A stretch of DNA of 64,000 nucleotides. Source: Achromobacter pulmonis. Its GTDB lineage: Bacteria; Pseudomonadota; Gammaproteobacteria; Burkholderiales; Burkholderiaceae_B. This document shows positions 10,269 to 25,896 of this stretch, piece after piece; within the stretch, counting starts at the first letter, position 1; each line of letters starts with the position of its first letter. The notes under the pieces are model-generated. The model was not told the origin of the DNA, ran no database searches, and worked only from the letters and a program-made list of their open reading frames with translations. The position numbers and the translations under genes are program-made. The DNA is taken from positions 1 through 64,000 of the forward strand of contig NZ_CADIJV010000008.1 in the NCBI RefSeq assembly GCF_902859765.1. The letters run 5' to 3'.

Positions 10269-10958
10269 ATGATTTCTAAGCTTGTTGCAAGCGCGGCGGC
10301 CGCCCTCGCCGACGTCCCCGACGGCGCCACCGTCATGATCGGCGGCTTCGGCACCGCCGGCCAGCCCATGGAACTGATCGACGCCCTGCTCGAACAAGGC
10401 GCCAAGGACCTGGTCATCATCAACAACAACGCCGGCAACGGCACCACCGGCCTGGCCGCCCTGCTGGGCGCCAACCGCGTGCGCAAGATCATCTGCTCGT
10501 TCCCGCGCCAGGTGGACTCGCAGATCTTCGACGGCCTGTACCGCAGCGGCAAGATCGAACTCGAACTGGTGCCGCAGGGCAACCTGGCCGAGCGCATCCG
10601 CGCCGCCGGCGCCGGCATCGGCGCCTTCTACTCGCCCACCGGCTACGGCACCCCGCTGGCCGACGGCAAGGAAACCCGCGAGATCAACGGCCGCCAGTAC
10701 GTGCTGGAATATCCGCTGCACGCCGACTACGCGCTCATCAAGGCCGAGCGCGGCGACCGCTGGGGCAACCTGGTGTACCGCAAGACCGCGCGCAACTTCG
10801 GCCCCATCATGGCCAGCGCCGCGCGCGTGGCCGTGGCCCAGGTGCGTGAAGTCGTCGAACTGGGCGCCCTCGATCCGGAAACCGTCGTCACCCCCGGCAT
10901 CTTCGTGCAGCGCGTCGTGCAGATCGACGCCGCCCAGGCCGCCAAGGAGCAGCAATGA
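10269..10958 (+). CDS. pcaI: 3-oxoadipate CoA-transferase subunit A
   Basis: PcaI with PcaJ moves CoA from succinyl-CoA to 3-oxoadipate, the penultimate step of the beta-ketoadipate pathway. The 229-residue protein has the alpha-subunit signatures MIGGFGTAGQPMELID, NNNAGNGTTGLAALL, CSFPRQ, ELVPQGNLAERIRAAG and YGTPLADGKETREING. From memory these match Pseudomonas PcaI block by block, which favours PcaI over acetoacetate-transferase AtoD. Its stop overlaps the pcaJ start (ATGA at 10955-10958), so the subunits are translationally coupled. Confidence 0.93.
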   Translation: MISKLVASAAAALADVPDGATVMIGGFGTAGQPMELIDALLEQGAKDLVIINNNAGNGTTGLAALLGANRVRKIICSFPRQVDSQIFDGLYRSGKIELELVPQGNLAERIRAAGAGIGAFYSPTGYGTPLADGKETREINGRQYVLEYPLHADYALIKAERGDRWGNLVYRKTARNFGPIMASAARVAVAQVREVVELGALDPETVVTPGIFVQRVVQIDAAQAAKEQQ

Positions 10959-11599
10959 GCACCAAACTGACCCGCGACCAGATCGCCGCCCGCGTCGCCC
11001 AGGACATTCCTGAAGGCGCCTACGTCAATCTCGGCATCGGCCTGCCGACGCTGGTGGCCAACCACCTGCCGGCCGACCGCGAAGTCATCCTGCACACCGA
11101 GAACGGCATGCTGGGCATGGGCCCGGCGCCGGCCAAGGGCGAGGAAGACTACGACCTGATCAACGCCGGCAAGCAGCCCGTCACCGAGCTGCCCGGCTGC
11201 TCGTTCTTCCACCATGCCGACTCGTTCGCGATGATGCGCGGCGGCCACCTGGACATCTGCGTGCTGGGCGCCTTCCAAGTGTCGCAGCACGGCGACCTGG
11301 CCAACTGGCACACCGGCGCGCCCGACGCCATCCCCGCCGTCGGCGGCGCGATGGACCTGGCCATCGGCGCCAAGGACGTCTTCGTCATGATGGAACTGCA
11401 GACCCGCGAAGGCCAGAGCAAGCTGGTCGACGCCTGCACCTACCCGCTGACCGGCGTGCGCTGCGTGTCGCGCGTGTACACCGACGTCGCGGTGTTCGAC
11501 ATCCGCGCCGACGGCGTCACGGTGATCGACATGTTCGGCGACATCACCGCCGACGAGCTGCTGCGCCTGACCGGCCTGCCGCTGAAGTTTTCCAACTGA
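10955..11599 (+). CDS. pcaJ: 3-oxoadipate CoA-transferase subunit B
   Basis: The beta subunit carries the catalytic Glu that forms the CoA thioester: LHTENGMLGMGP, with E49. Other signatures are VNLGIGLPTLVANHL, FFHHADSFAMMRGGH, ISC-type LGAFQVS and GDLANWHTG, all typical of PcaJ. At 214 residues its length is normal. It overlaps pcaI by four bases and is followed after 51 bases by muconolactone isomerase. Confidence 0.93.
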   Translation: MSTKLTRDQIAARVAQDIPEGAYVNLGIGLPTLVANHLPADREVILHTENGMLGMGPAPAKGEEDYDLINAGKQPVTELPGCSFFHHADSFAMMRGGHLDICVLGAFQVSQHGDLANWHTGAPDAIPAVGGAMDLAIGAKDVFVMMELQTREGQSKLVDACTYPLTGVRCVSRVYTDVAVFDIRADGVTVIDMFGDITADELLRLTGLPLKFSN

Positions 11600-11650
11600 T
11601 CCCCCCCGCGCCCCGGCCGTGCCGGGGCCGCTTTCCTGGAGACACCCATC

Positions 11651-11926
11651 ATGTTGTTCATGGTTCAAATGCAGGTCAATCTGCCCGTCGATATGCCGGC
11701 TGCGCAAGCCGACAAGCTCAAGGCCGACGAAAAGGCCCTGGCGCAGCAACTGCAACGCGACGGCAAGTGGAAGAGCCTGTGGCGCGTCGTCGGCCGCTAC
11801 GCCAACGTCAGCATCTTCGACGTGCAGGACAACGACGAACTGCACACGCTGCTGTCGTCGCTGCCGCTGTTCCCCTACATGGACATCCAGGTGACGGCGC
11901 TGGCGCGCCATCCCTCGGCCATCTGA
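11651..11926 (+). CDS. catC: muconolactone delta-isomerase
   Basis: CatC moves the double bond of muconolactone to give 3-oxoadipate enol-lactone in the catechol branch. The 91-residue frame is full length for this ferredoxin-like decamer subunit. It matches the family at MLFMVQMQVNLP, KWKSLWRVVGRYANVSIFDV and LPLFPYMDIQVTALARHPSAI. CCTGGAG precedes the ATG by about ten bases. With PcaD downstream and PcaIJ upstream, the operon can take muconolactone to 3-oxoadipyl-CoA. No catA (catechol dioxygenase) or catB (muconate cycloisomerase) lies in the window. Confidence 0.92.
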   Translation: MLFMVQMQVNLPVDMPAAQADKLKADEKALAQQLQRDGKWKSLWRVVGRYANVSIFDVQDNDELHTLLSSLPLFPYMDIQVTALARHPSAI

Positions 11927-11938
11927 ACGGAGCCGCCC

Positions 11939-12235
11939 ATGCCCTACATCATCGAGACCTTCGACAAGCCGGACCACCAGGCCGTGCGCCAGCAGCACCG
12001 CGCCGCGCACCTCGAATACCTGGACGCCAACAAGCACCTGCTGCTGGCCTGCGGCGCCAAGCTGCAGGATGACGGCACGGACCTGGGCGGCGGCCTGTAC
12101 ATCGTCGACCTGGACACGCGCGAGGCCGCGCAGCAGTTCATCGACGCCGACCCCTTCGCCCAGGCGCAGCTGTTCCAGCGCGTGACCATCACGCGCTGGC
12201 GCAAGGCCTACGTCGACGGCACCTGCCACCTGTAA
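11939..12235 (+). CDS. YciI-like (dimeric alpha-beta barrel) protein inside the beta-ketoadipate operon
   Basis: This 98-residue protein has the YciI pattern. It starts MPYIIETFDKPDH, has RAAHLEYLDANKH in the region of the family's conserved His, and has FIDADPFAQAQLFQRVTITRW, matching the DPF...G motif area. It begins 12 bases after catC with ribosome-binding ACGGAG. YciI proteins share the ferredoxin-like fold of muconolactone isomerase; one studied relative, TftG, eliminates HCl from a chlorinated hydroquinone. In this position it may isomerise or dehalogenate substituted muconolactones. Family assignment is good; function is inference. Confidence 0.8.
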   Translation: MPYIIETFDKPDHQAVRQQHRAAHLEYLDANKHLLLACGAKLQDDGTDLGGGLYIVDLDTREAAQQFIDADPFAQAQLFQRVTITRWRKAYVDGTCHL

Positions 12236-12290
12236 TCGCCACGCGGCCGCCCGCGGGCGGCCGCGCCTTCATTCCCCGAGGATTTCCCGC

Positions 12291-13070
12291 ATGTCTTACG
12301 CCGATCTCAGCCAGGCACGGCTGTACTACGTCATCGATGGCCCCGCCGACGCGCCGGTGCTGGTGCTCTCCAATTCGCTGGGCACCTGCGCCGACATGTG
12401 GGCGCGCCAGATTCCCGAACTGAGCAAGCACTTTCGCGTGCTGCGCTACGACACCCGCGGCCACGGCAAATCCTCGATCCCCGACGGCGAATACAGTTTC
12501 GCGCAGCTAGGCAACGACGTCGCCGAACTGCTGGCGCACCTGGGCATCGAACGCGCGCACTTCTGCGGCCTGTCGATGGGCGGCCCCACCGGCCTGTGGC
12601 TGGCGCTGAACCGCCCCGAACTGATCGGCAAACTGATCCTGTGCAACACCGCCGCGCGCATCGGCTCGGCCGAAGGCTGGAGCGCCCGCATCGCCGCCGT
12701 GGCCGAACAGACGCTGGAAAAAATGGCGCCCACCCTGGTCGAACGCTGGCTCACCGACGGCTACCGCGCCGCCGAGCCGGGCCTGGCGCAAGTGCTGGTG
12801 GACATGCTGCGCCGCACCTCGGACGCCGGCTACTCGGGCAACTGCGCCGCGCTGCGCGACGCCGATTTCCGCGAGCAGGTGTCGGCCATCAAGGCCCCGA
12901 CGCTGGTCATCGGCGGCACCCACGACCTGGCCGCCACGCCCGCGCAGGGCCAGGAACTGGCCGGCGCCATCCCGGGCGCGCGCTACCTCGAACTGAACAC
13001 CTCCCACATCTCCAACTGGGAACAACCGGAAGCCTTCACCCGCGCGGTGCTCGACTTCCTCACGCAATAG
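12291..13070 (+). CDS. pcaD: 3-oxoadipate enol-lactonase
   Basis: PcaD hydrolyses 3-oxoadipate enol-lactone to 3-oxoadipate. It is an alpha/beta-hydrolase of 259 residues: oxyanion segment LSNSLGTCADMW, nucleophile elbow GLSMGG with S95, the acid in GGTHDLA and the base in TSHISNWEQP. The cap and these motifs fit the enol-lactonase family rather than general esterases. It is the last gene of the operon, 55 bases after the YciI-like gene, and is followed by a strong bidirectional hairpin. Confidence 0.93.
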   Translation: MSYADLSQARLYYVIDGPADAPVLVLSNSLGTCADMWARQIPELSKHFRVLRYDTRGHGKSSIPDGEYSFAQLGNDVAELLAHLGIERAHFCGLSMGGPTGLWLALNRPELIGKLILCNTAARIGSAEGWSARIAAVAEQTLEKMAPTLVERWLTDGYRAAEPGLAQVLVDMLRRTSDAGYSGNCAALRDADFREQVSAIKAPTLVIGGTHDLAATPAQGQELAGAIPGARYLELNTSHISNWEQPEAFTRAVLDFLTQ

Positions 13071-15365: not shown

Positions 15366-16043
15366 TCAAACCCGATAGGCCTGCGCCAACCTCTCGTAAT
15401 TCCCCTTGAGAATGATCCCCGCGTAGTAGACATGCTCGCGCATCAGATCCTCGGCCCGCGCCCCATCCCGCGCAATGATGGCATTGACGATCCGGTGATG
15501 ATCGTCATGCGACCGCAGGATGATCCCGTGATCTTCCCAAAGGATGATCCGATCCGACGCATAAGGAATCGCCTGCGCCTGCGTCGCGAACCGCTTCACC
15601 CACGGATTGCCCGCCGCCTCCAGGATGCCGTTGTGCAGCGTGATGTTGACCTGCTGGTAAGGCAGATGATCCTCCGCCAGCAACACCCCCTTGCCGAGAA
15701 TCCGATCGCCTTCGTCCAGGCAATTCTTCAGCACCGCCACCGCGTCGTTCGATAGTCCGCGCAGCGCCGCCTGCCGGCAGGCCAGCCCCTCCAGCGCCGC
15801 GCGCACCTCATAGGCCGCCACGATCTCCGCCAGGTCATAGGCCCGCACCGTATAGCCGCGCTTGGGCAAATGCTCCAGCAGCCCTTCATTGCCCAGCGTC
15901 GCCAGGGCCGCCCGCACCGGCGTGCGCGACACCCCCAGCTTCTCGGCCAACGGGATTTCCTCCAGGCGGGCGCCCGGGCTGAATTTGCCATGCAGCACCC
16001 AGTCCCGCAGCGTATCGGTCACGTGTTGAGATAGCGTATCCAT
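15366..16043 (-). CDS. GntR-family regulator, FadR/FCD subfamily
   Basis: A 225-residue repressor-type protein. The N-terminal winged helix (residues 10-70) has ARLEEIPLAEKLGVSRTPVRAALATLGNEGLL. The C-terminal all-helical FCD domain has YEVRAALEGLACRQAA and the metal/ligand-binding His positions in LHNGILEAAG and HHRIVNAI. ATG 16043 gives the usual start; the frame extends 27 codons further without a better signal. It is divergent from the 16249-25775 operon, and two TGTATACA palindromes lie between them, so it probably represses that operon and itself until the substrate is present. Confidence 0.88.
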   Translation of the reverse strand: MDTLSQHVTDTLRDWVLHGKFSPGARLEEIPLAEKLGVSRTPVRAALATLGNEGLLEHLPKRGYTVRAYDLAEIVAAYEVRAALEGLACRQAALRGLSNDAVAVLKNCLDEGDRILGKGVLLAEDHLPYQQVNITLHNGILEAAGNPWVKRFATQAQAIPYASDRIILWEDHGIILRSHDDHHRIVNAIIARDGARAEDLMREHVYYAGIILKGNYERLAQAYRV

Positions 16044-16248: not shown

Positions 16249-17040
16249 ATGTCCAATGTATCCACGCCGGCCGCGGGCCCGGCCGCGCGGCTCGCGCTCG
16301 TCACCGGCGGCGGCGGCGGCATCGGCGCCACCATCTGCCAGGAGCTGGCCCGCGCCGGCTATCGCGTGGTGGCCTCCGACCTGGACGCCCGCCGCGCCGC
16401 CCGCGTGACCGACGAACTGGGCCCGCCGCACAGCGCCCACGCCTTCGACGTCAGCGACGAAAACGCCGTCGAAACCGCGTTCGACCAGATCGAACAGGCC
16501 CACGGCCCCATCGCCGTGCTGGTCAGCGCCGCCGGCCTGCTGCTGTTCCAGCCCAACGGCGAACGCCCGCTGATCAAGGACACCCCGCTCGACATCTGGG
16601 AACGCAGCTTCGCCGTCAACGCGCGCGGCGTGTTCCTGTGCGGCCGCGCCTACCTGCGCCGGCGCGAAGCCGCGCCGCTGCGGCATGGCCGCATCGTCAC
16701 CTTCACTTCGGTCGCCGCGCAGTTGGGCGGCTACCGCTCCAGCGCCTCCTACATCGCCGCCAAGTCGGCCGTGCTGGGTCTGACCAAGGCCATGGCGCGC
16801 GAGTCCGCGCACCTGGGCGTCACCGTCAACGGCATCGCGCCCGGCCTGATCGACACCGACATGCTGCGCAGCACCGTCACCAGCAGCGGCGCGCTCGCGG
16901 CCGCCGCGCAGGCGATTCCGCTGGGGCGCATCGGCACCGTGGACGACGTGGCCGCCGCCGTGCGTTTCCTGGCCTCGGAAGAAGCGGGCTACATCACCGG
17001 CAGCGTCATCGACGTCAACGGTGGCTACCGCATGCAGTGA
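16249..17040 (+). CDS. short-chain dehydrogenase/reductase, first gene of the GntR-controlled operon
   Basis: A 263-residue classical SDR: TGGGGGGIG cofactor loop near residue 19, S-A-A-G in place of NNAG, catalytic Ser in FTSVAA, and Y-I-A-A-K. An acidic residue after the second strand (SDLDA) suggests NAD preference. TAGGAGACAGC precedes the ATG. It leads an operon with an ABC importer and two further SDRs, so it probably oxidises an alcohol of the imported compound. Substrate unknown. Confidence 0.82.
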   Translation: MSNVSTPAAGPAARLALVTGGGGGIGATICQELARAGYRVVASDLDARRAARVTDELGPPHSAHAFDVSDENAVETAFDQIEQAHGPIAVLVSAAGLLLFQPNGERPLIKDTPLDIWERSFAVNARGVFLCGRAYLRRREAAPLRHGRIVTFTSVAAQLGGYRSSASYIAAKSAVLGLTKAMARESAHLGVTVNGIAPGLIDTDMLRSTVTSSGALAAAAQAIPLGRIGTVDDVAAAVRFLASEEAGYITGSVIDVNGGYRMQ

Positions 17041-17119
17041 ACCCAATCCGGCGGCTCCGCCGCCCTCGCAGCAACGCGCCATGGATAAAGGCGCGCACAC
17101 ATAAAACGGGAGACAAACC

Positions 17120-18331
17120 ATGAAGCACCTTCGCCGCCATGCGGCTGCCGCGCTATGCGCCCTCGCCCTGGGCGCCTCCGCCCAGGCCCAGCAGGAACCC
17201 GGCATCACCGACAAGACCATCAGGATCGGCCTGTTCGCCCCGCTCTCGGGCAGCGGCATGGCCTATGGCTTCGACGTGCTCAACGCTGCCAAGATGTGGT
17301 ACGCCAAGGTCAACAAGGAAGGCGGCATCAACGGCCGCCAGATCGAACTGGTGATCGAGGACGACCGCTGCAACGCCAACGACCTGGTGGCCGCGGTCAA
17401 GAAGCTGACCGAGCAGGACAAGGCGTTCCTGCTGAACGGCGGCTCATGCTCGGCCGCCGTCGTGGCCGCGCGCGAATACGTCGAGCGCGAGAAGGTGCCG
17501 CTGGTCATGCTCAACGCCTCCGGCGACGGCGCGCTGTACCCGCCGTCCAAGTACATCTACGGCGCCTTCTCGATCTCGCAACACGCCGTGGGCGGCTCGA
17601 TGGTGCAGTTCGCCGCCGAGCACCTCAAGGGCAAGAAGATCGGCTACATCAATCACGACGACGCCTACGGCGGCTGGAACCTGGAGGCCGCCCAGGCCCA
17701 GGCCAAGCACCTGGGCGGCGTGAGCCTGCAGGTGCAGTCGGTCAATCCCAACATCACCGACGTTACCGCGCCGATGCTGAAGATCCGCGCCGGCAACCCC
17801 GACGTGCTGCTGCTGACCACCTACGCGCGGCCCGCCGCGCTGATCATCAAGAAGGCGCAGGAACTGGGCTGGAACAAGCCCATCGTGCTGGCCGTCAACG
17901 GCACCGCCGACCTGAAGCAACTGGTCGAGAACGTCGGCAACAAGGACGCCTTCAAGAACGTCTACATCCAGGAAGTATTGAGCGACATGCCTGGCGGCGC
18001 CAAGCTGAGCTGGGTCTACGACATGTACAAACAGGCCTATCCGGACCTGGCCTCCAAGCCCGGCCATCCGCAGACCTATATGCCCTACGGGCTGCCGTCG
18101 GCGATGGCGGTGGTCAACGCGCTCAAGGCCGCCGGCCCGCAGCCCACCCGCGAGAAGGTGCTGGCCGCGCTGGAGACCATGAAGTTCGATTCCGGCGTCA
18201 TGGCCGGCCCGATCGAATTCGGCCCGAACGACCGCGCCGCGCAGGAGTCGGCCATCTACATCAAGTTCGACGGCAGCAACATGTCGCTCGTGCCGGGCGC
18301 CTTCAAGAGCGTCTGGCAGTACCAACCGTAA
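17120..18331 (+). CDS. Liv-type ABC transporter periplasmic binding protein
   Basis: A 403-residue LivJ/LivK-family protein. It has a signal peptide cut near ASAQA-QQEPG, then IRIGLFAPLSGSG, the N-terminal lobe entry of branched-chain amino-acid-type receptors. The cysteine pair in DDRCNAND and GGSCSAA fits the family. Proteins of this family in catabolic operons often bind aromatic or organic acids rather than amino acids. It is separated from the permease genes by a 222-base gap holding a palindromic repeat. Confidence 0.87.
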   Translation: MKHLRRHAAAALCALALGASAQAQQEPGITDKTIRIGLFAPLSGSGMAYGFDVLNAAKMWYAKVNKEGGINGRQIELVIEDDRCNANDLVAAVKKLTEQDKAFLLNGGSCSAAVVAAREYVEREKVPLVMLNASGDGALYPPSKYIYGAFSISQHAVGGSMVQFAAEHLKGKKIGYINHDDAYGGWNLEAAQAQAKHLGGVSLQVQSVNPNITDVTAPMLKIRAGNPDVLLLTTYARPAALIIKKAQELGWNKPIVLAVNGTADLKQLVENVGNKDAFKNVYIQEVLSDMPGGAKLSWVYDMYKQAYPDLASKPGHPQTYMPYGLPSAMAVVNALKAAGPQPTREKVLAALETMKFDSGVMAGPIEFGPNDRAAQESAIYIKFDGSNMSLVPGAFKSVWQYQP

Positions 18332-18346
18332 CCGCCGCCACAGGCA

Positions 18347-18506
18347 GTGTGCTGTCCCGTAGATACGTGCGCATGACGAAATTCATCCATTGGCGTCAGG
18401 GCTAGGCGCAAACCGCAGTGCTACCCGTAGGTAGCGCGAGGATTTGCAACGACGCCATGGCGTCAAGGGGTGGATTTCGTGCGGGCGTATCTGCGGGACA
18501 GCACAC
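18347..18506. repeat. 160-nt long imperfect palindrome (MITE/BIME-like element)
   Basis: The ends are 21-base inverted repeats (18347-18367 and 18486-18506) starting GTGTGCTGTCCCG, with one mismatch that becomes G-U in RNA. A second arm pair (ACGAAAT...GCGTCA against its complement) and a third (GCAAA...GCTACC) lead to a perfect GCTACC-CGTA-GGTAGC centre at 18420-18435. The whole block therefore folds as one long hairpin, with several paired differences. It lies inside the operon between the binding-protein and permease genes. No transposase is present, so it is non-autonomous. Confidence 0.75.
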
Positions 18507-18508
18507 CC

Positions 18509-18540
18509 GGTCCGCGCCGCGGCGCAGCGCCGCGCGGACC
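18509..18540. terminator. GC hairpin just before livH
   Basis: GGTCCGCGC and GCGCGGACC flank an inner GGCGC/GCGCC stem, ending 13 bases before the livH start codon. Its place inside the operon suggests RNA processing or attenuation between the binding protein and the permeases. No T-run follows. Confidence 0.45.
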
Positions 18541-18553
18541 GCCGGAGACCATC

Positions 18554-19456
18554 ATGAGCTTTGCCGATATCTGGTTGTTCCTGCAGCAGGGGGTGCTGTC
18601 GGGACTGGTGACGGGCAGCGTGTACGCGCTGCTGGCGGTCGCCGTCGTCATTATCTTCAAGACCACCGACGTGCCCAATTTCGCCCAGGGCGAGATCTTC
18701 ATGGTCGGGGGCTACATCGCCCTGTTCCTGACCCTGGTGATGGGCTGGCCCTACCTGGTGGTCATTCCGGTGACGCTGGCCCTGGTGGCCGTGGTCTCCG
18801 GCCTGTTCCAGCGCGTGGTGATGGAGCGCGTCATCGCCTCCAAGGGCGTGGGCGTGCAGATGGTGATCGCCACGCTGGGCCTGGCCTACGCCCTGAAGGG
18901 GCTGGTGCGCCAGAGCGGGCTGGGCGACACGCCGCGCTCGCTGCCGCCGCTCGCCCCCACCGACGCCATCCTCATCGGCGACGCGGTGCTGACACAGCTG
19001 GACCTGGTGATCTTCGCCGTGGCCGTGGCCGTGATGCTGCTGCTGTACGCGATGTTCACCCATACCCGCGTGGGCAAGGCCATGCGCGCCGTCGGCATGA
19101 ACCCCAAGGCCGCGCGCCTGGTGGGCGTGAACCTGACGCGCATCCGCATGATGGTGTGGGCGCTGTCCGGGCTGATCTCGGCCGTGGCCGCGCTGCTCAT
19201 CACGCCCAAGATCCTGATCACGCCGGACATCGGCCACATCGCCATCCTGGCCTACGCGGCCGCCATCGTCGGCGGCATCACCAGCCTGCCCGGCGCGGTG
19301 GTCGGCGGCTTCGTGATCGGCGTGGCCGAGAACCTGGTGGGCCTGTTCATTTCGACCAACGCCATCGTCGTGGCGCCCTTCGTCGCCATCATGGTGGTGC
19401 TGCTGCTGCGCCCGCAAGGCCTGCTGGGCGGCAAACTGCAGGTGAAAAAAGTATGA
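18554..19456 (+). CDS. Liv-type ABC transporter permease, LivH family
   Basis: A 300-residue inner-membrane permease with about eight hydrophobic segments. LivH features are GLVTGSVYALLAVAVVIIF at the start, DVPNFAQGEIFMVGGYIAL, RAVGMNPKAARLVGVN (the EAA-like coupling region) and LLLRPQGLLG at the end. ATG 18554 is used; an upstream in-frame ATG at 18470 would place the start inside the palindromic repeat and add a non-family extension. It overlaps livM by four bases (ATGA). Confidence 0.88.
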   Translation: MSFADIWLFLQQGVLSGLVTGSVYALLAVAVVIIFKTTDVPNFAQGEIFMVGGYIALFLTLVMGWPYLVVIPVTLALVAVVSGLFQRVVMERVIASKGVGVQMVIATLGLAYALKGLVRQSGLGDTPRSLPPLAPTDAILIGDAVLTQLDLVIFAVAVAVMLLLYAMFTHTRVGKAMRAVGMNPKAARLVGVNLTRIRMMVWALSGLISAVAALLITPKILITPDIGHIAILAYAAAIVGGITSLPGAVVGGFVIGVAENLVGLFISTNAIVVAPFVAIMVVLLLRPQGLLGGKLQVKKV

Positions 19457-20448
19457 AATCCAAGACCGACCGCGCCGTGCTGGCGCTGATGGCCGTGGTG
19501 CTGGCGGCCCTGCCGTTCATGGCCAGCGGCTACGTGATCTATGTCGTCAACCTGCTGATGGTGTTCGTGGTGCTGGCCCTGGGCCTGCATATCGTCATCG
19601 GCGAGACCGGGCAGTTCGCGCTGTCGCACGCCGCGTTCTACGGCGTCGGCATCTATACCGCCGGGCTGATCAACAACCTGTGGCATCCGCCCTTCTTCGT
19701 CTCGATCGTGGCGGGTGGACTGCTGGCCGCGCTGCTCGGCTACGTCATCGGCGCCCTGGCGCTGCGCATGCGCGACATCTACCTGGCGCTGTCGACCTTT
19801 GCCTTCGGCGAGGCAATGCAATGGGTGTTCCTGAACTGGCAGTCGGTGACCAACGGCTCGAACGGTTTTCGCATCTCGCCGGCCACGCTGTTCGGCTATG
19901 AACTGGTGTCCGACATCAAGGCCTACCCCTTCGTGGTCGCGATCGCCGCGCTGCTGCTGTGGGTCACCGTGGCGCTGTCGCGCTCGCAACTGGGCTCGGC
20001 CTTGCGTGCCGTGCGCGAAAGCGACGTGGCGGCGCAGGCGATGGGCGTGAACGTCAACGCCATCAAGCGCACCGCCTTCACGCTGTCGGCCGCCTACGCC
20101 GGCATTGCCGGCGGCATGTACACCACCTTCGCCTCGTTCATCCATCCGGAAAGCCTGGGGTTCCAGACCACCATCCTGATCCTGACCATGGTGGTGGTCG
20201 GCGGCATCGGCTCGGTGCGCGGCGCCATCGCCGGCGCGATCGGCTTCGGCCTGATCTCGGAACTGCTGCGCCAGGCGCTGTCGTTCCAGGAAATCATCTA
20301 CGGCGTGATTCTGATGGGCTTCATGATGTTCGCGCCCAAGGGCCTGTTCGCCGGCCGCGAGGCCCGCCGCCGCGCGCCGCCCCCGGCCGCGCCGTTGCCC
20401 GCGCGCCAGGACGCCGCCGCCAAACCGACGCAAAGGAGCGCCGCATGA
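19453..20448 (+). CDS. Liv-type ABC transporter permease, LivM family
   Basis: The second permease, 331 residues. It has LGLHIVIGETGQFALSHAAFYGVGIYT near residue 45 (the LivM signature), LALSTFAFGEAMQW, and RAVRESDVAAQAMGVN as coupling region. The C-terminal tail after FAPKGLFAGREARRR is a disordered Ala/Pro/Arg extension. ATG 19453 overlaps the livH stop; its own stop overlaps livG by four bases. Open reading frame continues upstream of 19453, but that part overlies livH. Confidence 0.88.
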   Translation: MKSKTDRAVLALMAVVLAALPFMASGYVIYVVNLLMVFVVLALGLHIVIGETGQFALSHAAFYGVGIYTAGLINNLWHPPFFVSIVAGGLLAALLGYVIGALALRMRDIYLALSTFAFGEAMQWVFLNWQSVTNGSNGFRISPATLFGYELVSDIKAYPFVVAIAALLLWVTVALSRSQLGSALRAVRESDVAAQAMGVNVNAIKRTAFTLSAAYAGIAGGMYTTFASFIHPESLGFQTTILILTMVVVGGIGSVRGAIAGAIGFGLISELLRQALSFQEIIYGVILMGFMMFAPKGLFAGREARRRAPPPAAPLPARQDAAAKPTQRSAA

Positions 20449-21201
20449 GCGCCCAACCCTATCTCGACGTCCAGGACCTGACGGTGAAGTTCGGCGGCCT
20501 GACCGCCATCAACGGCCTGTCGATGCAGGTCGAGCGCGGCCGCATCCATGCGCTGATCGGCCCCAACGGCGCCGGCAAGTCCACCACCTTCAACTGCGTC
20601 TCGCGCTACTACCGGCCGACCCAGGGCCGCATCGTTTTCGACGGCGTCGACATCACGAAAAAGAAGCCGCACGAGATGGCCGCGCTGGGCGTGGCCCGCA
20701 CCTTCCAGAACCTGGAGCTGTTCAGCGCCCTGAGCGTGCGCGAGAACGCCTTGCTGGGCACCTATGCCCACGGCGCCAACACGGCCGCGCGCCTGCTGCG
20801 CCCGGCCAATGCCGAGGCGCGCGAGCGCGTCGAACACCTGCTGGAGCGCGTCGGCCTGGCCGACTTCCTCGACACACCGGCGTGCAGCCTGGACTTCGGC
20901 CGCCAGAAGATGCTGGAGCTGGCGCGCGCCCTGGCCATCTCGCCCAAACTGCTGTTGCTGGACGAGCCCGCCGCCGGCCTGCGCAACCGAGAAATCGAGA
21001 CGCTCGACCGCATCCTGACCGAACTGTGCCAGCGTGACGGCATCACGGTGCTGCTGGTCGAACACGTGATGCAGCTGGTGATGTCGATCTCGGATCGCAT
21101 CACCGTCATGTCGTTCGGCGAGAAGATCGCCGAAGGCACGCCCGCGGAGGTGCGCAGCAACCCCCGCGTCATCGAAGCCTATCTGGGCAAGGGAGCCGCC
21201 G

Positions 21202-21209
<8 letters not shown>
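20445..21209 (+). CDS. Liv-type ABC transporter ATPase, LivG family
   Basis: The 254-residue nucleotide-binding subunit. Walker A is GPNGAGKST, the Q-loop follows in ARTFQNLELF (LivG hallmark), Walker B is LLLLDEPAAGL, and the switch His is in LLVEHVM. The ABC signature is degenerate, SLDFGRQ instead of LSGGQ, which LivG proteins tolerate (often AYGQQ). It overlaps both neighbours, by four bases with livM and eight with livF. Confidence 0.9.
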
Positions 21210-21921
<712 letters not shown>

Positions 21922-21931
21922 GGAGAACACC

Positions 21932-22684
21932 ATGGGCATGATGCAAGACAAGCGGGTTCTCGTCACCGGCGCCGGCCGCGGCCTGGGCGCCACCATCGCG
22001 CAGGGCTTCGCCCGCGAAGGCGCCACGGTGATCGTGGCCGACCTCGACCCCGCGCTGGCGCGCGCCAGCGCCCAGGCCATCGCCACGGCGGGCGGCCGCG
22101 CCGTCGATGCCGCGCTGGACGTGACCGATGCGCAGGCAGTGCGCGCCTTCGCCGCCGAATGCGAAGCGCGCCATGGCGCCCTCGACGTGCTGGTCAACAA
22201 TGCCGGCATCTCGGCGCGCGCGCCGTTCGACGATCCCCAGACCCCGCAGATCTGGGAACGCGTGATGAACGTGAACCTGCAAGGCACCTTCAACGTCACC
22301 CACGCCTTCGTCGAACAGCTCAAGGCCAGCCGCGGCGCCATCGTCAACCTGTGCTCGATCGTGGCCTATGGCTGCGGCATCTCGACCGCCGGCTACGTGG
22401 TGTCCAAGGGCGGCGTGCGCTCGTTCACCGAAGTGCTGGCGCGCGACCTGGCGCCGCACGGCGTGCGCGTCAACGCCGTCGCCCCCGGCCTGATGGAAAC
22501 CGAGATGACCGCCGGCCAGCGCGCCCAGGCCCACGGCACCGACTGGTACCTGCGGCGCGCGCCGATGGCGCGAACCGGACGCGCCGACGAAATCGTCGGC
22601 CCCGTGCTGTTCCTGGCCTCGGACATGGCCAGCTATGTCAATGGCGTGGTGCTGCCGGTGGACGGCGGCTACCTGGCCGTATAG
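21932..22684 (+). CDS. short-chain dehydrogenase/reductase, second in the operon
   Basis: A 250-residue SDR: TGAGRGLGATIA cofactor loop, VADLD acid for NAD, NNAGIS, catalytic Ser in NLCSIVAYG and Y-V-V-S-K. GGGAGAACACC precedes ATG 21932, ten bases after livF. Three different SDRs in one operon argue for successive or stereo-specific alcohol oxidations of one multiply hydroxylated substrate. Confidence 0.82.
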   Translation: MGMMQDKRVLVTGAGRGLGATIAQGFAREGATVIVADLDPALARASAQAIATAGGRAVDAALDVTDAQAVRAFAAECEARHGALDVLVNNAGISARAPFDDPQTPQIWERVMNVNLQGTFNVTHAFVEQLKASRGAIVNLCSIVAYGCGISTAGYVVSKGGVRSFTEVLARDLAPHGVRVNAVAPGLMETEMTAGQRAQAHGTDWYLRRAPMARTGRADEIVGPVLFLASDMASYVNGVVLPVDGGYLAV

Positions 22685-22692
22685 GAATCGAA

Positions 22693-23433
22693 ATGGAACC
22701 TCTCACCTCCCCCGGCACCGCGCTGGTCACCGGCGGCGCCAGCGGCATGGGCCTGGCGATCGTCGAACGGCTGGCGCGCGACGGCTTTCGCGTCGTCATG
22801 GCCGACCGCAACGCGGCCCTGGCCGACCAGGAAACCCAGGCGCTGCGCGCGCAAGGCCTGGACGTGGACTACCGCGTGGTCGACCTGGCCGACGAGCACG
22901 CCACCCGCGCCCTGGCGCGCGAACTGGCGCCGCTGGCGGCGCTGATCAACAACGCCGGCCTGTTCGACGAGCGCAAGTTCTTTGACGTCACCAGCGACGA
23001 CTACCGCCGCATGTACGACGTCAACCTGCTGGCGGTGGCCACACTGACGCAGGAGGCCGCGCGCGACATGCCCGCCGGCGGCAGGATCGTCAACATCGCC
23101 TCGCGCGCCTACCTGGGCGCCCGCAATCATCCCCATTACGTGGCCTCGAAGGCCGCGCTGGTGGGCTACACCCGCGCCTCGGCCATGGAACTGGCGCCGC
23201 GCGGCATCCTGGTCAACGCCATCGCTCCCGGGCTGATCGACACGCCGCTGCTGCGCAACCTGAGCGCCGAGCGCCTGGCCGCCCAACTGGCGCTGCAGCC
23301 CACGGGCCGCGCCGGCCGGCCGCAGGACGTGGCCAACGCGGTGGCGTTCCTGGCCTCGCCGCGCATGGATTTCATCACCGGCCAGGTCATCTTCGTGGAC
23401 GGCGGCAAATCGCTGGGCGGGTCGGGAGCATAG
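22693..23433 (+). CDS. short-chain dehydrogenase/reductase, third in the operon
   Basis: A 246-residue SDR with TGGASGMGLAIVE, VMADRNAA (Asp then Arg after the second strand), INNAG, catalytic Ser in NIASRAYLG and Y-V-A-S-K. The start lies eight bases after the previous stop with AGGAATCG as ribosome-binding site. The active-site Ser region (IASRAY) differs from the other two SDRs, so the substrates probably differ. Confidence 0.82.
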   Translation: MEPLTSPGTALVTGGASGMGLAIVERLARDGFRVVMADRNAALADQETQALRAQGLDVDYRVVDLADEHATRALARELAPLAALINNAGLFDERKFFDVTSDDYRRMYDVNLLAVATLTQEAARDMPAGGRIVNIASRAYLGARNHPHYVASKAALVGYTRASAMELAPRGILVNAIAPGLIDTPLLRNLSAERLAAQLALQPTGRAGRPQDVANAVAFLASPRMDFITGQVIFVDGGKSLGGSGA

Positions 23434-23438
23434 GCGGC

Positions 23439-25145
23439 ATGGACAGCATCAAGTGGGACAAGGAAGTCGACGCGCTCGTGGTCGGCTCGGGCGCCGGCGG
23501 CATGAGCGCCGCGCTGACCGCCAGCGTGGCGGGGCTGGACGTACTTCTCATCGAAAAGACCGGCCGCATCGGCGGCTCGACGGCTATCTCCGGCGGCGCG
23601 CTATGGATACCGCTTAACTCGCAGACCGAGGCCGCCGGCCATCCGGACAGCTTCGACAAGGTTTGGACCTATCTGACGGAGACCGTCGGCGACGGCGCTG
23701 CCGACGCCATGAAGCGCGCCTACCTGGAGGCCGGCCCGCGCATGCTGGACGACCTGGTCGCGCGCGGCTTCCTGCAAGTGGCCGCGCGCACCGCCTCGCC
23801 CGACTATTACCCCGACCGGCCCGGCGCGGCCATGGGCGGCCGCTCGCTCGATCCGGTGGAATTCGACGGCCGCAAACTGGGCCGCCATTTCAAGACGCTG
23901 CGCGATCCGCTCAAGGAATTCACGGTGCTGGGCGGCATGATGGTCAGCATCACCGACGTGCGCCATCTGCTGCGCGCCACCCGCGCGTTTGCGTCCTGGC
24001 GCCATGCCATGAAGCTGGTGCTGCGCTACGGCGCCGACCGCCTGCGCGGTTATCACCGCGGCACCCGCCTGCTGCTGGGCAACGCGTTGGCCGCGCAGCT
24101 GTTCCACGCCATGCTGACGCGCCAGGTGCCGTACTGGCTCAACACGCCGGCGCTGACCCTGCTGCGCGACGCTGGCGGCGCGGTGCTGGGCGCCACCGTC
24201 GAACACCAAGGCCGGCGCCTGAACATCCGCGCGCGCCGCGGCGTGGTGCTGGCCACCGGCGGCTTTCCCTGGGATTCCGCCCGCCGCCGCCAAACCTACC
24301 CGCATCCCACCGGCGACTGGTCGATGGCGCCGCGCGACAACACCGGCGACGGCATCCGCCTGGCCGAAGCCGCCGGCGCGACGCTGGGCCAGGGCTATTC
24401 CAGCCCCGCCTTCTGGGCCCCAGTCTCCATCCTGGAGCAGCCCGGCGGCAAGCGGCTGCATTACCCCCACCTGGTATGGGACCGCGCCAAGCCGGGACTG
24501 ATCGCCGTCAACGGCGCCGGCCGCCGCTTCGTCAACGAATCGACCTCGTACCACGCCTTCGTGCAGGCCATGTACCGCAGCCACGAACAGGCGCCGACAG
24601 TGCCCGCCTTCCTGCTGTGCGACCAGCGCTTCATCGACACCTGGGGCCTGGGCCTGGCGCTGCCGGGCGGACGCCCGCGCCAGCACCTGATCGACGCTGG
24701 CTACCTGTTGCAGGCGCCAACGCTGGAAGCACTGGCGCAGAAGCTGGGCGTGCCGGCCGACGCGCTGCGCGCCACCGTGGCGCGCTACAACGAACACGCG
24801 GCGCTGGGGCAGGACCCCGACTTCGGCAAGGGCGGCACCGCCTACAACCGCTACCTGGGCGACCCGGAACACCAACCCAACCCCTGCCTGGCGCCGCTCG
24901 GCGCCGGTCCCTACTACGCGGTCAAAGTCTATGCCGGCGACATCGGCACCGCCTGCGGCATCGCCGCCAACGGCAACGCGCAGGCCCTGGATGCCACGGG
25001 CCAGGTCATCGCCGGCCTGTACGTGGCCGGCAACGACATGCACTCGGTCATGGGCGGCGCCTACCCCGCGCCCGGCATCACGCTCGGACCCGCGCTGACG
25101 TTCGGCTGGGTCGCTGGACAACATCTGGCTCATGGCCAACACTGA
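23439..25145 (+). CDS. FAD-dependent dehydrogenase, 3-ketosteroid-delta1-dehydrogenase / fumarate-reductase-like family
   Basis: A 568-residue flavoprotein. The dinucleotide-binding motif VVGSGAGGMSAALTA lies at residues 14-28, followed by LLIEKTGRIGGSTAISGGALWIP, typical of the FAD_binding_2 family including KstD. The C-terminal FAD segment has AGNDMHSVMGGAYPAPGITLGPALTFG, close to the KstD/fumarate reductase pattern. Such enzymes introduce a double bond next to a carbonyl. It starts five bases after the third SDR. Inference: desaturation of a cyclic ketone made by the SDRs. Steroid specificity is not shown. Confidence 0.82.
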   Translation: MDSIKWDKEVDALVVGSGAGGMSAALTASVAGLDVLLIEKTGRIGGSTAISGGALWIPLNSQTEAAGHPDSFDKVWTYLTETVGDGAADAMKRAYLEAGPRMLDDLVARGFLQVAARTASPDYYPDRPGAAMGGRSLDPVEFDGRKLGRHFKTLRDPLKEFTVLGGMMVSITDVRHLLRATRAFASWRHAMKLVLRYGADRLRGYHRGTRLLLGNALAAQLFHAMLTRQVPYWLNTPALTLLRDAGGAVLGATVEHQGRRLNIRARRGVVLATGGFPWDSARRRQTYPHPTGDWSMAPRDNTGDGIRLAEAAGATLGQGYSSPAFWAPVSILEQPGGKRLHYPHLVWDRAKPGLIAVNGAGRRFVNESTSYHAFVQAMYRSHEQAPTVPAFLLCDQRFIDTWGLGLALPGGRPRQHLIDAGYLLQAPTLEALAQKLGVPADALRATVARYNEHAALGQDPDFGKGGTAYNRYLGDPEHQPNPCLAPLGAGPYYAVKVYAGDIGTACGIAANGNAQALDATGQVIAGLYVAGNDMHSVMGGAYPAPGITLGPALTFGWVAGQHLAHGQH

Positions 25146-25169
25146 CGCTCCACCCTGACAAGGACTCCC

Positions 25170-25775
25170 ATGAAGATCTACTTCTCGCCCGCCTCGCCCT
25201 TCGTGCGCAAATGCATGGTCATCGCCCATGAGCTGGGGCTGGCCGACCGCATCGAAAAGCTGCCCAGCGCCGCCGGCCCCGTGGCGCGCGACCAGACCAT
25301 CATCCCCGACAACCCGCTGGGCCAGGTGCCGACGCTGATCACCGACGACGGCCAGCGCCTGTTCGACAGCCGCGTCATCTGCGAATACCTGAACGACCTG
25401 GGCAAAGGCGCGCTGTTCCCGGCCGGCGCCGCCCGCTGGCACGCGCTGACCGAGCAATCGCTGGGCGACGGCATGCTGGGCGCGGCGCTGCTGGCGCGCT
25501 ACGAAACCGCGCTGCGGCCCGAGCCGCTGCGCTGGGACGGCTGGTACGAAGGCCAGATGGGCAAGGTGCGCGACGGCCTGGCGCTGCTGGAAAAAACCGC
25601 CGCCAGCCTCGAAGGCCGCCTCGACATCGGCACCATCACCATCGGTTGCGCGCTGGGCTACCTGGACTTCCGCTACCCCGATTTCGACTGGCGCGCCGGC
25701 CACCCCGCCGTCGCCGCCTGGTTCAAGGCGTTCAACCAGCGCCCGTCGATGCAGGCCACGTTGCCGCCCGCCTGA
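25170..25775 (+). CDS. glutathione S-transferase, YibF-like
   Basis: A 201-residue GST. The thioredoxin-like domain begins MKIYFSPASPFVRKCM (the S-P-F-V-R-K active-site loop), has PLGQVPTLI (cis-Pro) and FDSRVICEYL (the D-S glutathione contact). The helical domain ends with TITIGCALGYLDFRYPDF, typical of E. coli YibF relatives. As the last gene of a catabolic operon it may cleave an ether or halogen bond or isomerise an intermediate. A perfect terminator follows. Confidence 0.85.
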   Translation: MKIYFSPASPFVRKCMVIAHELGLADRIEKLPSAAGPVARDQTIIPDNPLGQVPTLITDDGQRLFDSRVICEYLNDLGKGALFPAGAARWHALTEQSLGDGMLGAALLARYETALRPEPLRWDGWYEGQMGKVRDGLALLEKTAASLEGRLDIGTITIGCALGYLDFRYPDFDWRAGHPAVAAWFKAFNQRPSMQATLPPA

Positions 25776-25867: not shown

Positions 25868-25896
25868 GCCCCTGGCTTTTGCCAGGGGCTTTTTTT
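25868..25896 (+). terminator. intrinsic terminator of the 16249-25775 operon
   Basis: GCCCCTGGC pairs perfectly with GCCAGGGGC around a TTTT loop and is followed by seven T residues. Confidence 0.93.

What the first reader, a model, noticed from the sequence alone, without database searches (positions are those of the whole stretch)
16249..25775. Unassigned catabolic operon: Liv importer, three SDRs, KstD-like flavoprotein and GST
The gene set is complete for uptake and stepwise oxidation of one compound. The SDRs differ in active-site context, the flavoprotein should desaturate a ketone, and a GST could cleave an ether or isomerise. SDR plus GST recalls beta-aryl-ether (lignin dimer) cleavage; SDR plus KstD recalls steroid or alicyclic degradation. 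No known pathway I recall combines all of these under one GntR regulator.
Basis: inference. Interest (0 to 1): 0.75.

Follow-up and report, generated by a model that had tools for sequence, protein, structure and literature searches.

The report
Alicyclic-acid operon likely feeding homogentisate
This is a self-contained bacterial gene set that probably imports a non-aromatic ring acid and dehydrogenates it until the ring becomes aromatic (homogentisate, an intermediate of tyrosine breakdown), an entry route I did not find described; the actual food molecule is still unknown.

Summary
The operon is real: a GntR-FCD regulator, three NAD-type SDRs, a Liv-type importer, a KstD-like flavoprotein and a YibF-like GST, ending at a terminator-like site. 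In 48 of 50 related loci all eleven slots keep one order; two are cut by contig ends; the SDR1 slot holds another SDR in 17 of the 48. Its operator motif occurs nowhere else in the genome. Lignin and steroid readings are not supported. The flavoprotein keeps the KstD catalytic residues in 60 of 60 operon sequences, but the genome shows no KshA_C match. The clue came from relatives: hmgA genes adjoin 3 of 9 alphaproteobacterial versions and start 75 bp after the GST in one Comamonadaceae version, 1 of 50. A Variovorax sister operon unites KstD, SDR, Liv, HmgA, FahA and CoA transferase. My reading: SDRs oxidise a hydroxylated cyclohexane-acetic acid to a 1,4-dione; one KstD-type desaturation makes homogentisate. 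Product fairly likely, substrate inferred. Against: 3 of 37 operon genomes lack an hmgA match, and pca genes lie upstream in Achromobacter.

The parts
15366..16043 (-). GntR-family regulator with FCD domain (divergent)
   Evidence: PF00392 + PF07729; kept in 48 of 50 related loci, the other two cut by contig ends
16052..16060 (.). operator-like site 1 (TGTATACAT)
   Evidence: 49 of 49 intergenic regions read (48 loci and the window) hold two GTATACA-type sites; the 9-mer occurs only here and at site 2 in the 5.67 Mb genome
16171..16180 (.). operator-like site 2 (palindrome ATGTATACAT)
16249..17040 (+). SDR1, NAD-type (Asp after beta-2), Ser-Tyr-Lys present; slot filled by another SDR in 17 of 48 loci
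17120..18331 (+). substrate-binding protein of Liv/HAAT type
   Evidence: PF13458 8e-60; 65-96% identical to 37 orthologues aligned
18343..18510 (.). 168-nt palindrome between binding-protein and permease genes
   Evidence: RNA fold -112.4 kcal/mol, z -12.4; single copy in own genome
18554..19456 (+). LivH-type permease
   Evidence: PF02653 3e-34; 74-98% identical in the operon loci that hold it
19453..20448 (+). LivM-type permease
   Evidence: PF02653
20445..21209 (+). LivG-type ATPase
   Evidence: PF00005 + PF12399
21202..21921 (+). LivF-type ATPase
   Evidence: PF00005
21932..22684 (+). SDR2, NAD-type; 50% identical to the SDR of the Variovorax KstD-HmgA sister operon
22693..23433 (+). SDR3, NAD-type; recognisable orthologue (53-61%) in the Chelatococcus and Methylobacterium versions
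23439..25145 (+). KstD-like FAD dehydrogenase; proposed ring desaturase/aromatase; Tyr123, Tyr371, Tyr542, Gly546 conserved
   Evidence: PF00890 4e-90; best solved relative 7p18, 5e-115; residues
25170..25775 (+). YibF-like glutathione S-transferase
25868..25896 (+). terminator-like site closing the operon

Best explanation
The operon is a peripheral catabolic route that turns a hydroxylated, non-aromatic cyclohexane acid into homogentisate (2,5-dihydroxyphenylacetate). Proposed steps: the Liv-type ABC importer brings in the acid; the NAD-type SDRs oxidise ring alcohols to a cyclohexane-1,4-dione; the KstD-like flavoprotein removes two hydrogens next to a ketone; the resulting ene-dione tautomerises to the hydroquinone. 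Only one desaturase is needed because a 1,4-dione becomes a hydroquinone after one desaturation. The GST handles the electrophilic ene-dione or quinone, or speeds the tautomerisation. Homogentisate then enters HmgA/FahA, encoded elsewhere in this genome. The GntR protein represses the operon through two TGTATACA sites and is lifted by the substrate or an intermediate. Shown: gene content, conserved order, operator-like motif, catalytic residues, hmgA and fahA in the genome. Inferred from neighbours in relatives: product homogentisate. Inferred only: the exact substrate (my candidate class is dihydroxycyclohexyl-acetates or their lactones), the order of steps, repression and effector, and the GST's role.
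For: Homogentisate genes adjoin orthologous operons in four arrangements. Chelatococcus plasmid: GntR, GST, hmgA, maiA on one strand. Paracoccus plasmid: hmgA, fahA, maiA beyond the KstD, with MarR-like genes between. Genome G1322: fahA and a second hmgA convergent with the GST, the other hmgA being on another contig. Comamonadaceae MAG L039, Liv type like the window: hmgA starts 75 bp after the GST stop, same strand, cut by the contig end. HmgA, MaiA and FahA pass NCBIfam cut-offs where full length; the L039 HmgA and the G1322 FahA are fragments below them. Control: of 116 flank ORFs from 9 alphaproteobacterial operons (two of them with one flank only), HmgA is the only family shared by 3; three others are shared by 2. 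Independent parallel: a sister operon in V. paradoxus ISL-79 has KstD, SDR, binding protein, LivHMGF, HmgA, FahA and CoA transferase on one strand (FahA by tblastn only). KstD catalytic residues kept in 60 of 60. The three window SDRs have Asp at the NAD-selecting position and Ser-Tyr-Lys (rule recalled). 34 of 37 operon genomes have an hmgA match (33 over cut-off) against 29 of 120 (19 over cut-off) of its order; leaving out the six alphaproteobacterial genomes it is 28 of 31 (27 over cut-off). Own genome: hmgA with fahA on contig C18. No other TGTATACAT site in the genome.
Against: Three of 37 operon-bearing genomes have no hmgA match: those of L033 Caenimonas soli, L041 Acidovorax sic0104 and the MAG of L047. 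Only 1 of 50 loci of the Burkholderiales-type operon has hmgA adjacent; most hold only about 2 kb upstream and 9.3 kb downstream, and 15 kb upstream stretches of six Achromobacter and two Variovorax genomes held no homogentisate genes. KstDs of the TRAP-type operons form their own clade; one clade with the Liv type is neither shown nor rejected (p-AU 0.22). The SDR2 slot and the importer differ between the two types. In the window a pcaI/pcaJ/pcaD cluster lies upstream, kept in 5 of 6 further Achromobacter genomes and absent in 2 of 2 Variovorax, which would suit a protocatechuate product in Achromobacter. No natural 2,5-dioxygenated cyclohexane-acetate is known to me as an abundant substrate. 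HmgA adjacency was noticed after the fact.
Confidence: 0.55

Rival explanations
1. Same chemistry on a quinol-type plant acid (rengynic acid or jacaranone type, oxygen at ring carbons 1 and 4): SDR oxidises the 4-OH, KstD desaturates twice to the quinol-acetate, and a 1,2-shift of the side chain, perhaps GST/GSH assisted, gives homogentisate.
For: Rengynic acid, rengyol, jacaranone and cornoside appear in plant-chemistry papers (search listing only; structures recalled); they would explain an acid importer, the GST and homogentisate as product.
Against: Needs a rearrangement for which no gene is evident; the Variovorax sister operon shows no GST among the genes read.
Confidence: 0.15
2. Aromatisation of a C6-C1 carbocycle (hydroxycyclohexanecarboxylate or shikimate/quinate type) to 4-hydroxybenzoate, protocatechuate or gentisate, feeding the pca genes upstream in Achromobacter.
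For: pcaI, pcaJ and pcaD at 10269-13070, kept upstream in 5 of 6 other Achromobacter genomes looked at; more distant KstD relatives sit with AroE/AroQ-like genes (judged by eye) and, in Azospirillum, near gentisate dioxygenase; ChcC2 model gives 442 bits.
Against: pca genes are absent from the upstream stretch in 1 of 6 Achromobacter and 2 of 2 Variovorax genomes and are separated from the operon by other genes; ChcC1/ChcC2/ChcB2 cut-offs missed; a mono-ketone would need two desaturases, and there is one; does not explain hmgA beside four operons.
Confidence: 0.15
3. Steroid or bile-acid modification (three hydroxysteroid dehydrogenases plus Delta1-dehydrogenase).
For: KstD catalytic residues present; best solved relative is an oxosteroid 1-dehydrogenase.
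Against: No KshA_C match in the own genome; among 20 operon genomes 6 have marginal matches of 25.4 bits or less, 4 of them just over the 23.3-bit cut-off; KstD cut-offs missed by about 280-440 bits; hmgA beside related operons.
Confidence: 0.05
4. Beta-aryl-ether (lignin dimer) cleavage by SDR plus GST.
For: SDR and GST genes together.
Against: GST is YibF-like; a ring-ketone desaturase has no role there.
Confidence: 0.03

Closest known systems
Cyclohexanecarboxylate aromatisation (chc) of Sinomonas cyclohexanicum
   Same: Ring alcohol oxidised by a dehydrogenase, then desaturases aromatise the ring (passage read in PMC9795900); ChcB2 and ChcC models in NCBIfam match SDR2, SDR3 and KstD below cut-off
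   Different: Starts with a P450 and uses two desaturases to reach 4-hydroxybenzoate (same passage); here no P450, one desaturase, three SDRs, a GST, and homogentisate genes beside some related operons
3-Ketosteroid Delta1-dehydrogenase (KstD1; 7p18)
   Same: Family by sequence, catalytic Tyr/Tyr/Tyr/Gly
   Different: Context and curated cut-offs speak against a steroid enzyme
Homogentisate (HmgA-MaiA-FahA) central pathway
   Same: Proposed entry point; its genes adjoin four orthologous operons and form part of a sister operon
   Different: The entries to homogentisate that I recall start from aromatic compounds; this would start from a non-aromatic ring
Liv/HAAT ABC importers
   Same: All five subunits and gene order
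   Different: Binding protein far below the LivJ/K-type model (61 against 477 bits)

Membership tests
KstD-like flavoprotein dehydrogenase | FAD_binding_2 domain and catalytic Tyr, Tyr, Tyr, Gly | tested here: met
   (Tyr123, Tyr371, Tyr542, Gly546 in 60 of 60; residue roles recalled)
Steroid catabolic system | KstD equivalog score and 3-ketosteroid 9alpha-hydroxylase in the genome | tested here: not met
   505.6 of 789, 456.2 of 788 and 356.6 of 793 bits; PF19298 no match in own genome
chc cyclohexanecarboxylate aromatisation | ChcC1, ChcC2 and ChcB2 equivalog scores | tested here: not met
   318.6/1000, 442.5/900 and at best 174.7/350 bits
Beta-aryl-ether (Lig) system | LigE/LigF/LigG-type GST | tested here: inconclusive
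   GST is closest to YibF (E 2e-59); none of 21 matched solved chains is named a beta-etherase, but names alone do not exclude one; NCBIfam lists only PRK10357 at 1e-10
Homogentisate-feeding operon | homogentisate genes in or beside orthologous operons | tested here: met
   4 of 59 operon loci (1 of 50, 3 of 9 alphaproteobacterial); absent from the 64-kb window's operon surroundings as annotated here
Homogentisate-feeding operon | hmgA present in operon-bearing genomes | tested here: inconclusive
   34 of 37 searched have a match, 33 over cut-off; 3 have none; L018's genome was not held
Homogentisate-feeding operon | enzymes form homogentisate | not testable with these tools
   needs assay
Liv branched-chain amino acid importer | LivJ/LivK-type binding-protein model (PRK15404) | tested here: not met
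   61.2 of 477 bits

The most novel reading that the evidence does not exclude
A previously undescribed, self-contained route from a non-aromatic ring acid to homogentisate, shared by Alcaligenaceae, Comamonadaceae and several Alphaproteobacteria, in which a single KstD-type desaturation of a cyclohexane-1,4-dione makes the aromatic ring and the GST handles the ene-dione. Together with the Variovorax sister operon and the AroE- and gentisate-linked relatives it would mean that much of the 'KstD-like' protein family aromatises small carbocyclic acids and has nothing to do with steroids.
Probability: 0.42. Interest if true: 0.72.

Novelty: new variant of a known kind. Interest (0 to 1): 0.55.

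Why it matters
Proteins of this kind are named after 3-ketosteroid dehydrogenases although the genome here shows no other steroid gene that I tested for (KshA_C). If this reading holds, one branch of the family aromatises small alicyclic acids, giving a testable function to an operon whose KstD occurs in 28 of 43 genomes of the window's genus and whose full gene order recurs in Variovorax, Xenophilus, Acidovorax and others. It would also add an entry to the homogentisate pathway that, unlike the entries I recall, does not start from an aromatic compound.

Tried and rejected
Steroid and lignin readings: see rivals. Regulon mining: the operator 9-mer has no further exact site in the genome, so it gave no extra pathway genes but suggests that the operon stands alone. 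Literature: eight searches that ran showed no description of this operon in their listings; the library lacks most subscription journals. SBP and SDR3 searches over evenly drawn genomes gave few hits: 1 of 369, 3 of 399, 3 of 398, 1 of 318; useful relatives came, plasmid records, the phylum search and a search of 199 genomes of G977's family. Other SDR3-like hits lie in loci where the search found no KstD (L098, L127, L129-L133) and were not counted as operons. hmgA copies in other Variovorax contigs (L146, L147, L148) are not beside operon genes; the HmgA of L148 is split over two frames. Solved-structure matches of SDR1 and SDR3 are generic, and the two closest to SDR2 (5ha5, 5er6) carry no named function. 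Structure prediction never ran. On checking the draft I found that I had claimed without a test that pca adjacency is confined to Achromobacter; searches then tested it (5 of 6 Achromobacter, 0 of 2 Variovorax), and my statement on flanking genes was recounted.
Full report
Observation. The window belongs to an Achromobacter-like genome (the six closest KstD relatives, 89-94% identical, are all Achromobacter). The last gene is followed by the terminator-like site with the longest stem in the region, 25868-25889.

Conservation. A scan of public genomes with the flavoprotein gave 79 loci (the best 80 of 122 matches were kept). Fifty of them (L001-L049, L052) carry the operon; in 48 of these all eleven slots occur in the same order, and the other two (L001, L044) are cut by contig ends. 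Hosts are Achromobacter, Bordetella genomosp. 2, Variovorax, Pseudacidovorax, Xenophilus, Acidovorax, Caenimonas and several MAGs. The SDR1 slot holds an orthologue (69-96%) in 31 of the 48 and a different SDR (33-38%) in 17. Flanks: the loci mostly hold 2 kb upstream and 9.3 kb downstream of the operon; of 31 flank families shared by at least three loci, 12 are confined to Achromobacter, 18 to the other loci, and one joins Achromobacter with Bordetella; none joins Achromobacter with Comamonadaceae. The unit shared between families of bacteria is thus GntR to GST. In the window's genus 28 of 43 genomes have a close KstD (77-100%).

Regulation. Each of 49 GntR-SDR1 intergenic regions read (48 loci and the window) holds two GTATACA-type sites, about 62, 73 or 119 bp apart in most and 106 bp in two loci. 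TGTATACAT occurs in the 5.67 Mb genome only at these two sites (three hits because one site is a palindrome; reversed-pattern control 0). The operon is therefore probably the regulator's only strict target.

Enzymes. The flavoprotein matches FAD_binding_2 and, among solved structures, best the oxosteroid 1-dehydrogenase 7p18 (5e-115). The KstD catalytic residues (roles recalled) are conserved in 60 of 60 operon sequences; in 32 other relatives three of the four are kept in all and the first Tyr in 29. It falls well below the curated KstD and ChcC cut-offs. The three SDRs have the Ser-Tyr-Lys set and Asp after beta-2, read as NAD preference, hence oxidation (rule recalled). The GST is YibF-like; homologues (53%) on Klebsiella plasmids lie beside a quinone oxidoreductase gene, a weak hint at quinone-like electrophiles.

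Steroid and lignin tests. The own genome has one full-length KstD-like gene and no match to KshA_C; of 20 operon genomes searched, 6 show marginal matches of at most 25.4 bits, 4 of them just over the cut-off of 23.3. For lignin only the GST was tested: none of 21 matched solved chains is named a beta-etherase.

Where the product goes. Plasmid searches with SBP, KstD and SDR3 led to a full Liv version in Methylobacterium currus and to versions in which a TRAP transporter replaces Liv in Chelatococcus and Paracoccus. A phylum-wide search gave G977, a search of 199 genomes of its family more, and region fetches brought six further operons (L096, L119, L121, L123, L125, L128). Of these nine alphaproteobacterial operons, three adjoin homogentisate genes in three different arrangements: Chelatococcus (hmgA, maiA), Paracoccus (hmgA, fahA, maiA) and G1322 (fahA, hmgA); in the stretches fetched the other six do not. 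NCBIfam confirms HmgA, MaiA and FahA (the G1322 FahA is a fragment below its cut-off). G1322 has another hmgA on a different contig, so the adjacent one is extra. Among 116 flank ORFs of the nine loci, HmgA is the only family shared by three; three further families are shared by two. In a Comamonadaceae MAG with the Liv-type operon (L039), hmgA begins 75 bp after the GST stop on the same strand and is cut by the contig end (390.7 bits as a fragment, cut-off 510.75).

A second, more distant operon in Variovorax paradoxus ISL-79 (contig G1365:C75) carries a KstD (43-44% to ours), an SDR (50% to SDR2), binding protein, LivHMGF, two further genes, HmgA, FahA (tblastn, 43%) and a 3-oxoacid CoA transferase on one strand. 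That is import, alcohol oxidation, desaturation and the homogentisate pathway down to acetoacetate activation in one run of genes.

Mechanism. A cyclohexane-1,4-dione needs only one desaturation to become, by tautomerisation, a hydroquinone, whereas a mono-ketone needs two to become a phenol; in the chc pathway two desaturases are used (passage in PMC9795900). One desaturase plus several alcohol dehydrogenases therefore suits a hydroquinone product, and homogentisate is a hydroquinone. This is inference. The substrate is not determined; a carboxylate is likely because TRAP transporters (carboxylate importers, recalled) replace Liv in seven operons.

Contrary evidence. Three of 37 operon-bearing genomes searched (those of L033, L041, L047) have no hmgA match, and one more (L039's) only fragments; L018's genome was not held. 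The order-wide rate is 29 of 120, 19 over cut-off, the own genome included, but genome size and genus confound the contrast. Only one of 50 loci has hmgA adjacent, and 15-kb upstream stretches of six Achromobacter and two Variovorax genomes hold no homogentisate gene. The KstD tree puts TRAP-type and Liv-type enzymes in separate clades; one clade for all (L050 and L051, which lack the operon, included) is not rejected (p-AU 0.224, or 0.108 with L125). In the window a pca cluster lies upstream, kept in 5 of 6 other Achromobacter genomes and in neither of two Variovorax. The adjacency to hmgA was found, not predicted.

Verdict. No published description was seen in the listings of eight full-text searches, which do not cover most subscription journals. 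I call it a new variant of a known kind: alicyclic aromatisation with a new combination of parts and a new entry point.

Noticed in passing
window 18343-18510: A 168-nt near-perfect palindrome sits between the binding-protein and livH genes (RNA z-score -12.4). It is single-copy in the own genome; A. dolens (L013) has a shorter version at the same place, A. insuavis (L010) has none; the six Achromobacter gaps printed share a smaller hairpin just before livH.
   Followed up: partly
window 10269-13070: pcaI, pcaJ and pcaD (beta-ketoadipate pathway) lie upstream of the operon, also in 5 of 6 other Achromobacter genomes but in neither of two Variovorax looked at.
   Followed up: yes
L086 3045-11269: On the Methylobacterium currus plasmid a second cluster (FAD oxidoreductase, Liv importer, two SDRs) lies next to the orthologous operon, pointing the other way.
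   Followed up: no
L057 8234-13734; L059 6806-16210: In Pseudomonas and Crenobacter two KstD-like genes cluster with AroE-like genes, small NIPSNAP- or EthD-like genes and an IclR-like regulator (AroQ-like too in Crenobacter); names judged by eye from sequence. They may aromatise shikimate-type acids.
   Followed up: no
L091 7286-18989: Azospirillum plasmid: KstD-like gene, SDRs and a Liv importer run into 3-hydroxybenzoate 6-monooxygenase and gentisate dioxygenase genes, a possible C6-C1 parallel.
   Followed up: no
GntR-SDR1 intergenic regions: Operator spacing takes values near 62, 73, 106 and 119 bp in different groups; several are close to whole helical turns, so looping is possible.
   Followed up: no
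L051 4910-21006: Azoarcus MAG: KstD (60%) and an SDR1-like gene (47%) lie with enoyl-CoA hydratase-like, CoA-ligase-like and ferredoxin-like genes (judged by eye), so a close KstD relative also occurs in a different setting.
   Followed up: no
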